A stretch of DNA of 52,346 nucleotides from a virus: positions 1 to 52,346 of IMG/VR virus record IMGVR_UViG_3300008267_000113; one strand, 5' to 3'. A program made the translations under genes and the position numbers. Position 1 is the stretch's first letter; every line of letters begins with the position of its first letter. Under the pieces are notes generated by a model. The model ran no database searches. It was not told the origin of the DNA and saw nothing but the letters and a program-made list of their open reading frames with translations. Of this stretch, positions 133 to 12,717 are shown one piece after another.

Positions 133-1485
133 ATGGGTAAAGTAAAAAAGTTTTTTAGTAAAAGTGGCTGGGAATCCTCCGATTTTGGAGGGTTTTCCCA
201 GCTTTTATGGGATCTTCCTGAAATGAAAATGCCTTATGGTTTTAACATTACAGCGGGAGATAAATCTCAATATATTAGTCCTTATTCTGAAAAGAAGCTA
301 CTAGCTGTTTTTATCAATGCTGTTAACAAATACGGTTATCAAGATACATTTTTAGAATCTTGTAAAGCAGAAAAAGTAGACAATTTCTATGGATATGGTG
401 TATATAGATCAAGTATTGTTTACACTTTTAATAAAGAATCTGTAAAAGCTTGTTTAAGAGGTATCATAAAGAATGAAAAGGAGCTTTCTTCATTATTTAC
501 TAATTATAGTAATTTGATAAGTAATTCAACAATTACTTATAAATTTTCCTTAAAAGATGAGGATACTGAAGACTATTTGTCTATAGGTAAATCAACTAAG
601 GATTTTTTAAGAAGTGAAATAAATTCTGTTGAGAAGCAAACTCGTTCTAATATATGGGGTGACTATAAATCTAGTTCTAGCTGTTATGAAGATCTTAAAA
701 AGAATACTACATTTAAGGTTATGTCTGAGCAGGAGAGTGAACATCATTATAATTCCAATGAAGTAAAAAACTCTGAAAAACTGTTAAATCTTCTTGATAT
801 TTCTTTTGATCAGGATGAGACTAAAATTACTAATCTAAGAACTGGTAAAATAGATATTCCTAAAATTGCTGAGGCAATAGCAGGAAATCATCTTATCAAT
901 TTTAGAAAAGAGCTTCATGATAGAACTAAGCCTTTTAGTGTTTGCATTCTAAATGATGAGAGTGGTAGTATGGACTATTCTGGTTATAGAGATAGCCAAC
1001 ACAGTATTACAAAAATGCTTTATTTGACATTCTCTCAAGTAATGGATCCTAAAGACATTTATATATATGGTCATACAGGTGGTAATGTTCCTGAAATTCA
1101 TGTATATAATGACAAGTACAACCAGATTTTTGAAAAAGCTTATGCTCGTCAAAATAGAGTAAACTTTTTAGAGAATTATGATGGTCCTGTTATTGACAAT
1201 ATCTATGACAAAATTAGATCTTATACTGATAAGAACATTCTTTTCATTGTAATTTCTGATGGTCAACCTGCAGGTTACAGATATGGAAGCTCTTCAGACC
1301 GTGATGATTTAAAGAGAATTGTTGAAAAATGCAAAAGGGACGGTTTTGTAGCTTGCGGTATAGGTTTTAACTATACTGGAGTTCAAGAGTTGTACAAATA
1401 CAATACTGTTGTTACAGAAATGTCTAAAGCTCCTGAGGCTATTAGTATGCTTATTAACAATGTTGTAAAATCCGAATTTCAATAA
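133..1485 (+). CDS. VWA-domain protein with intact MIDAS motif
   Basis: A 450-residue protein whose C-terminal half is a von Willebrand factor A domain. The metal-ion-dependent adhesion site reads D275-E-S-G-S279 (DxSxS). A candidate threonine ligand is T315 in GHTGG, and the third acidic position is D376 in ISDGQP. The N-terminal ~260 residues match nothing I recognise. VWA proteins with a complete MIDAS commonly act as adaptors for MoxR-type AAA+ ATPases, and such an ATPase plus a second VWA protein lie at 10329-12717, so a functional link is likely but inferred. The ATG at 133 follows an A/T-rich leader with no Shine-Dalgarno. A terminator-like hairpin lies at 167-206 inside the gene, and an intrinsic terminator follows the stop. 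Confidence 0.8.
   Translation: MGKVKKFFSKSGWESSDFGGFSQLLWDLPEMKMPYGFNITAGDKSQYISPYSEKKLLAVFINAVNKYGYQDTFLESCKAEKVDNFYGYGVYRSSIVYTFNKESVKACLRGIIKNEKELSSLFTNYSNLISNSTITYKFSLKDEDTEDYLSIGKSTKDFLRSEINSVEKQTRSNIWGDYKSSSSCYEDLKKNTTFKVMSEQESEHHYNSNEVKNSEKLLNLLDISFDQDETKITNLRTGKIDIPKIAEAIAGNHLINFRKELHDRTKPFSVCILNDESGSMDYSGYRDSQHSITKMLYLTFSQVMDPKDIYIYGHTGGNVPEIHVYNDKYNQIFEKAYARQNRVNFLENYDGPVIDNIYDKIRSYTDKNILFIVISDGQPAGYRYGSSSDRDDLKRIVEKCKRDGFVACGIGFNYTGVQELYKYNTVVTEMSKAPEAISMLINNVVKSEFQ
167..206 (+). promoter_or_regulatory. Intragenic terminator-like hairpin (possible attenuator)
   Basis: GCTGGGAA (167-174) pairs with TTCCCAGC (195-202). Inside it CCTCC (176-180) pairs with GGAGG (187-191) around a GATTTT loop. 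TTTT follows directly at 203-206. The structure begins 34 bases after the ATG of the VWA gene. It looks like an intrinsic terminator in a place where one would block the gene, so attenuation or a processing site is possible. It could also be coding coincidence. Confidence 0.4.
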
Positions 1486-10328: not shown

Positions 10329-11516
10329 ATGGATAAGAATAAAAGTATATCCAAAATTTGTAAAGATTTATTATTGAGAGAGCCCTATTACGGGCTTTTT
10401 CTTATTATGACTGATAAAGTCTGGACAGAAAAAGTTCCTACAGCCGGTGTGGCAAGAAGTGGAATTTCTTATAAGCTCTATATAAATGAAAACTTTTGGG
10501 AGAGTCTAAGTGAAAAACACAAACTAGGTTTAACAAAACACGAAATGTTACACCTGGCCTTCTTTCATCCAATGATGGGAGATCTCTTTTCAGATAAAGA
10601 TGTTTTTAACATTGCTGCAGATATTGAAATTAATCAATATATTAGTGAGGATGAACTACCAGAAGGTGGTGTTACTTTAAAGACATTTCCAGAACTAAAT
10701 CTTCCAATAAAAGCCGGTACAAGAGCTTATTATGACCTCTTGCTTCAGGCACAAAAAGATAATACCTCTCCTTTGCTAAATAAACTCCTTGAGTCTATGA
10801 AAAGCGATAAAGTAGAGATATATGTAGATGACACATTGGTTCCAAACCATGATACTTGGGAAGAATACAATGACCTTAGTGACTCAGAAAAGAAGTTGAT
10901 TAAAAATCAAGTTAAGTATAACATTGAGAAACTAGCAGAAGAAATTAAGAAAGGTAGAGGTACTGTTCCATCAGAGATTGAACAGATACTAAAATCTTTT
11001 GAGAATCTAGAACCGCCAAAGTTTGATTGGAGAGGATATCTTAGAAGATTTGTTGGAAATTCAAATAAGGTTTATACTAAGAAACTTAGAAGAAAGTTTA
11101 ACAAGAGATTTGAAGATAATCCCGGATTAAAAATCAAAAAGCGCCAGCATATTTTGCTAGCTATAGATACATCCGGTTCTGTAAGTAATGATGAGCTTCA
11201 GGAATTCTTTTCTGAAATTAATCATATACACAGAACAGGTGTTGATATTACCCTTGTACAATGTGATGCCGCTATTTCTAATATAGGCTCATATAAACCA
11301 GGTGTAGATATCAAAATCTATGGTAGAGGCGGTACTAGCTTTGAACCTGTTATAGAGTATTATAATGCAAATCAAAGAATATATACTAGTCTTATATATT
11401 TTACAGATGGTGAGGCTCCTGCACCAGAAAAACCAAAAGGAAGAATCCTTTGGGTACTAAGTGAAAGATCTAAATTAAATGAACAATTACCAGGACAAGT
11501 AATCAAACTAAATTAA
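10329..11516 (+). CDS. DUF2201-like metallopeptidase-VWA protein
   Basis: A 395-residue two-domain protein. The N-terminal domain has the zinc-binding HEMLH (H71-H75) followed by H80 and a conserved IAADIEINQYI helix. This is the pattern of the DUF2201 putative metallopeptidase domain. The C-terminal domain is a VWA fold with MIDAS residues D280-T-S-G-S284 and D360 in YFTDGE. In bacteria this protein type is encoded next to MoxR AAA+ ATPases, exactly as here, with one base between the genes. The pair probably remodels or matures a protein target. A short terminator-like hairpin lies 52 bases inside the gene. The target is unknown. Confidence 0.85.
   Translation: MDKNKSISKICKDLLLREPYYGLFLIMTDKVWTEKVPTAGVARSGISYKLYINENFWESLSEKHKLGLTKHEMLHLAFFHPMMGDLFSDKDVFNIAADIEINQYISEDELPEGGVTLKTFPELNLPIKAGTRAYYDLLLQAQKDNTSPLLNKLLESMKSDKVEIYVDDTLVPNHDTWEEYNDLSDSEKKLIKNQVKYNIEKLAEEIKKGRGTVPSEIEQILKSFENLEPPKFDWRGYLRRFVGNSNKVYTKKLRRKFNKRFEDNPGLKIKKRQHILLAIDTSGSVSNDELQEFFSEINHIHRTGVDITLVQCDAAISNIGSYKPGVDIKIYGRGGTSFEPVIEYYNANQRIYTSLIYFTDGEAPAPEKPKGRILWVLSERSKLNEQLPGQVIKLN
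10381..10400 (+). promoter_or_regulatory. Intragenic terminator-like hairpin (possible attenuator)
   Basis: AGCCC (10381-10385) pairs with GGGCT (10392-10396) around TATTAC and is followed by TTTT. A few A-T and G-T pairs can extend the stem outward. It begins 52 bases after the ATG of the metallopeptidase-VWA gene. The stem is short, so the evidence is weaker than for the hairpin in the first VWA gene. Confidence 0.3.
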
Positions 11517-11517
11517 G

Positions 11518-12717
11518 ATGTCAAAGAAAACACACGCACATGTAAATTTGAACACTGATGAGCTTAAGGATTTCATTAAGCACATGATTGAAAATAATAG
11601 GCATATTCAAGGGCAAGGTAAGAAACCAGTTGCTATAAATATTGAGGGAGAAGCAGGTCTTGGCAAGACTAGCACTATTCTCCAAATTGCAGAAGAGCTC
11701 AATCTACAATGTATAAAGCTCAATTTGAGCCACATTGAGGAGCTAGGTGACCTTGTAGGTTATCCTATGAAAGAGCATGAGATGATTAAGACAAAAGATT
11801 CAGAAACACTAGTTAAATGGGTTACCGAGTCTACTATGCCAATGTATATTTCTAGTGGGTACAAACCTACAGGTGAGAAAAGAATGACACATGCTGCGCC
11901 AGAATGGATTCAAGGCAAAGAAGAGGGTGGTATTCTAATTTTGGATGACTGGACTAGAGCTGATCTACGCTTTGTTCAAGCAGTAATGGAGGTAATAGAT
12001 AGACAAGAGTACATCTCTTGGAAACTACCTAAAGACTGGCACATAGTACTAACCTCTAATCCTGATAACGGTGAGTATCTAGTAAACAGTATTGACAAAG
12101 CTCAAAGAACCAGATTTATTACCACTCATCTTGAGTTTGATATTAAGTGTTGGGCAAGATGGGCAGAAGAAAATAAGGTTGACAGCAGATGTATTAACTT
12201 CTTACTAATGAATCCTGAACTAGTAAGTGGAGATATTAATCCTAGGAGTATAACTACTTTCTTTAATTCTATAAGCTCCATTAAATCATTTGAGGATAAT
12301 TTGAGAATTATTCAGATGATTGGTGAAGGTAGTGTAGGTGAAGAGTTTACTTCAATGTTTACTACATTCATTGCCAATAAGTTAGATATTTTGATATCTC
12401 CTCATGATATACTTTTGGATGCTAATTGGGATAGTGTTGAGACAAAGTTACATAGTAGTATGAATGACTCATCCGGTTATAGAGCTGATATTGCTAGCTT
12501 AATGGCAACCCGTTTTAGTAACTATGCAGTTGTTCATTCTAATGGTAATAGCATCAATGATAAAATTCTAGATAGAATTAAAAATATCATGAAGTCTGAG
12601 AAGCTATTCACCCTTGATTTACACTATGTAATTATCAAAACAATCATTTCAGGTAACAGGACTAAGTTCCAAAAACTACTTCTTGATCCAGAAATTGTAA
12701 AATTAACAGTTCAATAA
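11518..12717 (+). CDS. MoxR-type AAA+ ATPase
   Basis: A 399-residue ATPase with Walker A GEAGLGKTS (residues 44-52) and Walker B ILILDDW (D143, D144). Sensor 1 is N181 in LTSNPDNGEY, and KAQRTRF supplies candidate arginine fingers. This order matches the MoxR family of AAA+ proteins, which use ATP to remodel protein complexes with VWA partners. One base separates it from the metallopeptidase-VWA gene, and a second VWA protein with intact MIDAS is encoded at 133-1485, so the phage carries a full ATPase plus two adaptors. Its job in infection is unknown. A host-protein or virion assembly target is possible. Confidence 0.85.
   Translation: MSKKTHAHVNLNTDELKDFIKHMIENNRHIQGQGKKPVAINIEGEAGLGKTSTILQIAEELNLQCIKLNLSHIEELGDLVGYPMKEHEMIKTKDSETLVKWVTESTMPMYISSGYKPTGEKRMTHAAPEWIQGKEEGGILILDDWTRADLRFVQAVMEVIDRQEYISWKLPKDWHIVLTSNPDNGEYLVNSIDKAQRTRFITTHLEFDIKCWARWAEENKVDSRCINFLLMNPELVSGDINPRSITTFFNSISSIKSFEDNLRIIQMIGEGSVGEEFTSMFTTFIANKLDILISPHDILLDANWDSVETKLHSSMNDSSGYRADIASLMATRFSNYAVVHSNGNSINDKILDRIKNIMKSEKLFTLDLHYVIIKTIISGNRTKFQKLLLDPEIVKLTVQ

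What the first reader, a model, noticed from the sequence alone, without database searches (positions are those of the whole stretch)
10329..12717. Phage-encoded MoxR AAA+ ATPase with a metallopeptidase-VWA partner and a second VWA protein
A MoxR-type ATPase (Walker A 44-52, DD at 143-144) sits one base behind a protein with HEMLH plus a complete VWA MIDAS. Another complete MIDAS VWA protein lies at 133-1485. MoxR-VWA sets in bacteria remodel or mature proteins, and related sets occur in conflict systems. A lytic-type phage carrying ATPase, zinc domain and two adaptors in its replication region is unusual and could form an uncharacterised protein-remodelling or counter-defence machine. The motifs are seen; the joint function is inferred.
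Basis: partly seen in the sequence, partly recalled or inferred. Interest (0 to 1): 0.72.

Follow-up and report, generated by a model that had tools for sequence, protein, structure and literature searches.

The report
Phage AAA+/VWA protein-remodelling pair

Summary
Window 10329-11516 encodes a DUF2201 metallopeptidase-VWA protein; one base later, 11518-12717 encodes an AAA+ ATPase. The reading as an unusual three-gene machine is not supported. The pair is the N4 gp25/gp24 family: N4 gp25 matches 642 of 50,697 phage records, and 16 of 16 isolate phages examined, each picked by one of the genes, carry both. Iyer et al. 2021 already described a MoxR plus metallopeptidase-vWA pair in jumbo phages. 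The second VWA gene (133-1485) is CobT-like. In a 103-kb contig of the same virus its own CobS-like ATPase lies directly upstream, just outside the window; this order holds in 8 of 8 loci. Nine other large records with the pair lack this VWA gene. The pair lies between primase and exonuclease genes in 42 of 48 related loci, but a minority group differs and one member has baseplate genes nearby. N4 transcribes it as middle genes; AR9 has an early promoter upstream. I favour replication-phase remodelling over virion assembly, without certainty; the client is unknown. Small differences: reversed gene order, and Walker-B Asp for Glu in 55 of 55 close relatives.

The parts
10329..11516 (+). Metallopeptidase-VWA adaptor (DUF2201_N + DUF2201), homologue of N4 gp25
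   Evidence: Pfam PF13203 1.9e-16 and PF09967 6.8e-18; phrog_1314 5.4e-64, the family N4 gp25 hits at 1.3e-135
10539..10553 (+). HEMLH (residues 71-75), putative zinc site; D98 and N102 downstream also invariant
   Evidence: Invariant in 33 of 33; the matching HExxH, Asp and Asn are invariant in 19 of 19 in an alignment with 15 isolate phages; zinc binding is inferred
11070..11108 (+). Basic segment before the VWA domain (residues 248-260, VYTKKLRRKFNKR), my candidate for a finger that enters the ATPase ring
   Evidence: TKKx[RK]RK in 55 of 57 distinct close relatives; one Arg invariant in 19 of 19; low model confidence here; role inferred from NorD (PMC13036017)
11166..11180 (+). MIDAS DTSGS (residues 280-284); completed by T336 (11334-11336) and D360 (11406-11408)
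   Evidence: Invariant in 33 of 33 and 19 of 19; VWA fold in the model, residues 271-395, Z 11.8, 2.5 A over 125 residues
11518..12717 (+). AAA+ ATPase, MoxR/NorQ-like, homologue of N4 gp24
   Evidence: phrog_1297 3.9e-35, the family N4 gp24 hits at 2.1e-136; the model's best Foldseek hits are NorQ, E 3.3e-8
11647..11673 (+). Walker A GEAGLGKTS (residues 44-52)
   Evidence: Motif in 55 of 55 distinct complete close relatives
11944..11949 (+). Walker B DD (residues 143-144); Asp in place of the usual catalytic Glu
   Evidence: LDD in 55 of 55 distinct close relatives; Glu in 14 of 14 isolate-phage homologues, read by eye from the alignment
133..1485 (+). Second VWA protein, CobT-like; belongs to a different pair whose CobS-like ATPase lies upstream of the window
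   Evidence: phrog_17276 CobT 9.2e-7 and phrog_1576 5.9e-11; CobS-like ATPase directly upstream in L108
9808..10326 (+). Context: Holliday junction resolvase-like gene just upstream of the pair
   Evidence: phrog_1770 3.6e-24; found in only 5 of 33 related loci

Best explanation
Genes 10329-11516 and 11518-12717 encode a two-part AAA+/VWA remodelling machine of the N4 gp24/gp25 family, used mainly while the phage replicates its DNA. The ATPase forms a ring (inferred). The VWA protein docks on it, perhaps through the basic segment ahead of its VWA domain (inferred, by analogy with NorD), holds a client through the MIDAS metal (inferred), and ATP-driven rotation of the VWA domain against the N-terminal zinc domain opens, processes or frees the client (inferred). 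The client is perhaps a phage replication or nucleotide-metabolism protein (inferred, weakly). The second VWA gene at 133-1485 works with a different, CobS-like ATPase. Shown here: family membership, conserved gene pairing, intact metal and nucleotide motifs, location in the replication block of this virus and most close relatives, and the separate ATPase gene next to the second VWA gene.
For: Both proteins hit the same two PHROG families as N4 gp24 and gp25. Same strand, ends within 1.2 kb, in 86 of 86 related loci with at least 1.3 kb upstream. Both genes in 16 of 16 isolate phages: 13 within the fetched stretch, 3 elsewhere in the record. HExxH and MIDAS invariant in 19 of 19, 15 of them isolate phages of Gram-negatives, Bacillus, Moorella, Thermus and cyanobacteria. 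The ATPase model's first 15 Foldseek hits are NorQ chains. Primase upstream and PD-(D/E)XK exonuclease downstream in 42 of 48 related loci with both flanks. Median identity to the window is 59% (ATPase) and 52% (adaptor), against 61% for DnaB and 59% for the DNA polymerase where present. N4 homologues are middle-gene transcripts (PMC4193335, passages). An early promoter is annotated upstream of the AR9 ATPase gene, while 41 of 43 AR9 virion protein genes are late (PMC5312081, passages). Second VWA: own ATPase in 8 of 8 loci, 0 of 9 other pair-bearing large records.
Against: No interaction was predicted or measured; complex modelling was not available. In a minority group of close relatives the replication genes were not found: 7 of 56 loci with more than 5 kb upstream lack the primase and 16 of 63 with more than 2.5 kb downstream lack the exonuclease; in one of these, L060, an endolysin and a baseplate wedge gene lie downstream, which suits virion assembly. 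Virion or morphogenesis genes are annotated near the pair in 5 of 16 isolate stretches. Timing comes from two phages only, and the AR9 class was not looked up gene by gene. MoxR proper is unproven: below Pfam cut-off, and the second structural comparison ties NorQ and CbbQ2 with RFC, dynein and HslU. The Walker-B Asp could mean slow or no hydrolysis. The adaptor is missing from 11 of 11 sampled records with related terminases, two of which have weak ATPase hits.
Confidence: 0.5

Rival explanations
1. Virion-assembly chaperone with proteolytic processing of structural proteins, as Iyer et al. 2021 proposed for the jumbo-phage pair.
For: Published proposal (PMC7824862, passages); MoxR ATPase p618, which binds VWA protein p892, is linked to tail development in the archaeal virus ATV (PMC4124505, passages); virion or morphogenesis genes near the pair in 5 of 16 isolate stretches; endolysin and baseplate wedge genes downstream of the pair in L060.
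Against: Replication-block location in 42 of 48 related loci; middle or early transcription signals in N4 and AR9.
Confidence: 0.27
2. Metal-insertion or cofactor chaperone for a phage enzyme, like NorQD or CobST, with the HExxH site holding or delivering the metal instead of cutting protein.
For: Best Foldseek matches of the ATPase are NorQ; thymidylate synthase, ThyX or dCTP/dCMP deaminase genes near the pair in 5 of 16 isolate stretches.
Against: No metalloenzyme gene is a constant neighbour; the HExxH glutamate, needed more for catalysis than for metal binding (general knowledge), is invariant in 19 of 19.
Confidence: 0.13
3. Counter-defence or host-attack machine.
For: MoxR-VWA sets occur in conflict systems (PMC7159879, passages); an early promoter in AR9 is compatible.
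Against: The adaptor is in 33 of 33 loci found through the ATPase, with identity near that of the replication genes, unlike typically patchy anti-defence genes; no PADLOC match to the VWA proteins.
Confidence: 0.08
4. Three-gene machine in which both VWA proteins serve the one ATPase of the window.
For: Both VWA genes are on the same strand in this virus, about 9 kb apart.
Against: The second VWA has its own ATPase directly upstream in 8 of 8 loci and was found in 0 of 9 other pair-bearing large records.
Confidence: 0.02

Closest known systems
Coliphage N4 gp24 (ATPase) and gp25 (vWFA protein), core genes of N4-like phages
   Same: Same PHROG families, same domains and metal-site motifs, neighbouring genes
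   Different: Gene order reversed here (adaptor first); about 20% (ATPase) and 24-26% (adaptor) identity to N4; Walker B is DD instead of DE
MoxR + metallopeptidase-vWA chaperone pair of group 2.2 jumbo phages (Iyer et al. 2021, PMC7824862, passages)
   Same: Same architecture as the passages describe; jumbo phages PBECO4 and phiKp_21 carry homologues
   Different: Here in a virus whose terminase is nearest to Crassvirales, with the pair inside the replication block
NorQ/NorD and other cellular MoxR-VWA machines (CbbQ/CbbO, RavA/ViaA)
   Same: AAA+ ATPase with a VWA partner; NorQ is the ATPase model's best Foldseek match
   Different: Their VWA partners have no HExxH domain as far as I recall; clients differ
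CobS/CobT cobaltochelatase subunits (for the second VWA gene)
   Same: VWA2 and its upstream ATPase match CobT-like and CobS-like families
   Different: Low similarity (best PDB match CobT, E 0.0011); no cobalamin genes were sought

Membership tests
N4 gp24/gp25 phage pair | DUF2201_N + DUF2201 protein over the Pfam cut-offs and phrog_1314 over its full length | tested here: met
   N4 gp25 itself
N4 gp24/gp25 phage pair | ATPase of phrog_1297 | tested here: met
   3.9e-35, residues 30-385; N4 gp24 2.1e-136
N4 gp24/gp25 phage pair | The two genes together in the genome | tested here: met
   86 of 86 related loci with room; 16 of 16 isolates
N4 gp24/gp25 phage pair | HExxH and complete MIDAS | tested here: met
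   19 of 19
MoxR AAA+ ATPases | AAA+ core: Walker A, sensor 1 Asn, conserved Arg residues | tested here: met
MoxR AAA+ ATPases | Canonical Walker B Glu | tested here: not met
   Asp in 55 of 55 close relatives and in the window; Glu in 14 of 14 isolate homologues. I therefore call it MoxR-like only
MoxR AAA+ ATPases | Fold closest to MoxR, helix-2 insert hairpin, curated family match | tested here: inconclusive
   First 15 Foldseek hits NorQ and a hairpin at 84-103, but Z ties with RFC, dynein, HslU and Pfam AAA_5 and AAA_3 are below cut-off
Zincin metallopeptidases | HExxH in a zincin fold with a third ligand; proteolytic activity | tested here: inconclusive
   Motif lies on a predicted helix; the fold rows cover mostly the VWA half; activity cannot be tested here
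CobS/CobT (second VWA gene) | CobT-like VWA protein next to a CobS-like ATPase | tested here: met
CobS/CobT (second VWA gene) | CobN and cobalamin synthesis | not tested
MoxR-vWA conflict (ternary) systems | Match to known defence models; third component (VMAP, beta-propeller and others) | tested here: inconclusive
   PADLOC: no hit to the VWA proteins, weak DolB and BrxF hits to the ATPase; third components were not sought directly

The most novel reading that the evidence does not exclude
This virus runs at least two, possibly three, independent AAA+/VWA machines (gp24/gp25-type, CobS/CobT-type, and a third AAA_5 ATPase with a 278-aa neighbour carrying a DxS motif at L108:12145-13911). The gp24-type ring of these viruses is fixed with Asp in place of the catalytic Glu, making a slow, clamp-like remodeller that acts on the replisome, with the zinc domain cutting or releasing its client.
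Probability: 0.1. Interest if true: 0.6.

Novelty: new member of a known kind. Interest (0 to 1): 0.35.

Why it matters
gp24 and gp25 are listed as core genes of N4-like phages, and the passages I read give them no function. Finding the pair inside the replication block of a distantly related phage group, and with an early promoter annotated in AR9, is evidence to weigh against the published virion-assembly proposal and makes the two roles testable side by side in N4. It also shows that the label 'HNH endonuclease' on gp25-like proteins in PHROG and RefSeq is contradicted by their Pfam domains.

Tried and rejected
Three-gene machine: rejected because the second VWA has its own ATPase and was not found with the pair in other large records. 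The converse is weaker: four records with the second VWA lack the adaptor, but they are 14 to 71 kb long and may be fragments. One adaptor as a recent copy of the other: the profiles align only over 19 columns at the MIDAS motif, without significance. Defence-system membership: PADLOC gave nothing for the VWA proteins and weak P-loop hits for the ATPase. Solved homologues by sequence: no convincing one for the adaptor; the ATPase profile reaches the midasin P-loop region. Third AAA ATPase and its 278-aa neighbour: the neighbour has no Pfam family at E 0.1, no relative in the viral-contig scan besides its own contig, and no significant similarity to the VWA2 profile; left open. Zincin fold of the N-terminal domain: the structure rows cover mostly the VWA half, which shows nothing either way. 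My first context count (33 of 34 loci) demanded long flanks and left out most of a divergent group; a recount with shorter flanks gave 42 of 48, and L060 of that group has endolysin and baseplate genes nearby. I lowered the main confidence from 0.55 to 0.5 and raised the virion-assembly rival from 0.22 to 0.27 for this. Literature: CRISPRi-ART paper, passages, no 'phage N4' in it; N4 RNA polymerase review, no gp24 or gp25; crAss-like + von Willebrand + ATPase gave 0 papers and DUF2201 gave 4, seen as a listing, none with that function as its subject. Repeats around the pair were read as chance; no tRNA genes in the window. Not done: complex modelling, phylogeny, terminase typing of the relatives.

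Full report
What is there. The window is a 52,346-base virus record. At 10329-11516 lies a 395-aa protein with DUF2201_N (putative metallopeptidase) and DUF2201 (VWA-like) domains (Pfam 1.9e-16 and 6.8e-18). One base after its stop codon starts a 399-aa AAA+ ATPase. An IMG/VR contig of 103,022 bases (IMGVR_UViG_3300031758_000022, handle G001) is identical to the window over the first 22.7 kb, the part compared, and let me read beyond the window's left end.

Family. Both proteins match the PHROG families of coliphage N4 gp25 and gp24. PHROG and RefSeq label the gp25 family 'HNH endonuclease', but in N4 gp25 Pfam finds DUF2201_N and DUF2201 (3.1e-87 and 1.4e-46) and nothing else at E 0.1. N4 gp25 finds 642 of 50,697 phage records, near-identical records counted apart; the window protein finds 380. 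The pair is known: gp24 ('unknown') and gp25 ('vWFA domain') are in the core gene list of N4-like phages (PMC4193335, passages), and Iyer et al. 2021 named a MoxR-vWA pair with an N-terminal metallopeptidase in jumbo phages and proposed a role in virion assembly with processing of structural proteins (PMC7824862, passages).

Pairing. Of 91 related loci with one ATPase hit, 86 have at least 1.3 kb upstream, and in 86 of 86 the adaptor gene is there on the same strand, 75 bases overlapping to 1,154 bases away. The loci are partly redundant (24 ATPase clusters at 85% identity among the complete ones, window included), one is the window's own virus, 80 were collected with the ATPase and 11 with the adaptor. 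Of 16 isolate-phage stretches, each fetched through a hit to one of the genes, 13 hold both, 2 lack the ATPase (A6-1, pYD6-A) and 1 lacks the adaptor (pv27). Whole-record searches found the missing gene in those 3, away from its partner; the pYD6-A ATPase is in two pieces. In the 13, the ATPase comes first; here the adaptor comes first.

Motif conservation. Across 19 adaptors (15 isolates, 4 of this group) HExxH, a downstream Asp and Asn, an Arg in the segment before the VWA domain and the five MIDAS residues are invariant. In 57 distinct close relatives of the adaptor HExxH, NxAxDxxxN, DxSxS, GRGGT and TDG are always present, and the basic motif in 55. In 55 distinct close relatives of the ATPase Walker A, sensor 1 and the AQ(R/K)TR motif are always present and Walker B is always LDD, whereas 14 of 14 isolate ATPases have Glu at that place, by eye.

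Structure. The adaptor model (mean pLDDT 84, pTM 0.57) has a VWA domain at 271-395 (Z 11.8, 2.5 A over 125 residues); its Foldseek E-values are modest (best 1.4e-4). The ATPase model (pLDDT 83, pTM 0.69) has NorQ chains as its first 15 Foldseek hits (E 3.3e-8 to 5.4e-7); a second aligner ties NorQ and CbbQ2 (Z 12.0) with RFC (12.8), dynein (12.5) and HslU (12.2). So AAA+ is firm, MoxR-like is likely, MoxR proper is not proven.

The second VWA protein. Window 133-1485 is CobT-like. Directly upstream, outside the window, G001 encodes a 356-aa CobS-like ATPase (phrog_249 1.2e-22, AAA_5 2e-13). The same order holds in 7 of 7 loci found with this VWA, the window's own virus and one with broken frames included, and in Bacteroides phage BS162P1. 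Its profile was found in 3 of 12 large records; one is this virus and two were chosen because they carry it, so among the 9 other records with the gp24/gp25-type pair it is 0 of 9. It is thus a separate module.

Context and timing. Of 48 related loci with more than 5 kb upstream and 2.5 kb downstream, 42 have the primase upstream and the PD-(D/E)XK exonuclease downstream; one side at a time it is 49 of 56 and 47 of 63. With longer flanks it is 33 of 34, with the DNA polymerase in 31. The misses form a second group (such as L051, L057, L060, L071); in L060 an endolysin and a baseplate wedge gene lie 3 to 9 kb downstream, in L071 the neighbours tested are mostly unknown. So the pair is not tied to replication genes in all relatives. 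In 33 loci found through the ATPase, median identities to the window are 59% (ATPase) and 52% (adaptor), against 61% for DnaB (28 loci), 59% for the polymerase (30) and 43% for the primase (32). In the 16 isolate stretches I counted from the annotated products replication or nucleotide genes near the pair in 13 and virion or morphogenesis genes in 5, without a control. N4 gp24 and gp25 are middle-gene transcripts. In AR9 an early promoter is the only one annotated in the stretch, just upstream of the ATPase gene; 41 of 43 AR9 virion protein genes are late (PMC5312081, passages).

Virus. The G001 terminase, portal and major head protein match PHROG head families. The terminase finds 144 phage records, at 22-26% identity in those listed, many of Crassvirales, others of Flavobacterium phages. 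None of 11 such records sampled has the adaptor or the second VWA; cr10_1 and Fpv3 have weak ATPase hits (5.5e-9 and 0.0043). So the pair is not a general feature of that group.

Mechanism. From the NorQD structures (PMC13036017, abstract and Discussion), a VWA partner inserts a finger into the AAA+ pore and its VWA domain is turned against its N-terminal part, straining the client; the authors presume this finger-in-pore mode is general for AAA+/VWA pairs. The adaptor here has fitting parts: N-terminal zinc-type domain, conserved basic segment, VWA domain with complete MIDAS. I infer that the ring turns the VWA domain while the zinc domain processes or holds a client, in the replication phase. 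The client, the finger role, any proteolysis and the phase are inference.

Verdict. A real, well conserved and previously described kind of phage machine in another phage group, with small differences; the three-gene reading is not supported.

Noticed in passing
window 11944-11949; close relatives: Walker B carries Asp instead of the catalytic Glu in 55 of 55 distinct close relatives of the ATPase, Glu in 14 of 14 isolate homologues.
   Followed up: partly
L108:12145-13911 (contig G001, about 63-65 kb): A third AAA_5 ATPase (287 aa) followed by a 278-aa protein with a DxS-type motif that may be a degenerate VWA; no relative of the latter found.
   Followed up: partly
phrog_1314; N4 gp25, AR9 gp029 and other RefSeq records: Labelled 'HNH endonuclease' although Pfam finds metallopeptidase-like and VWA-like domains.
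   Followed up: yes
Pseudoalteromonas phage pYD6-A, 15598-17471: The gp24-like ATPase gene is in two pieces about 0.8 kb apart, which may be an insertion or intron.
   Followed up: no
L113:6807-8660 (Bacteroides phage BS162P1): The CobT-like VWA protein there has an N-terminal HEGCH motif that the window's shorter version lacks.
   Followed up: no
L060 and related loci (L051, L057, L071): A second group of close relatives has the same pair in another setting; L060 has endolysin and baseplate wedge genes downstream.
   Followed up: partly
window 19376-43851, minus strand: Three giant ORFs of 2352, 3679 and 2119 aa; no PHROG family for the first, an exonuclease-like patch in the 2119-aa one; the 3679-aa one was not searched.
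   Followed up: partly
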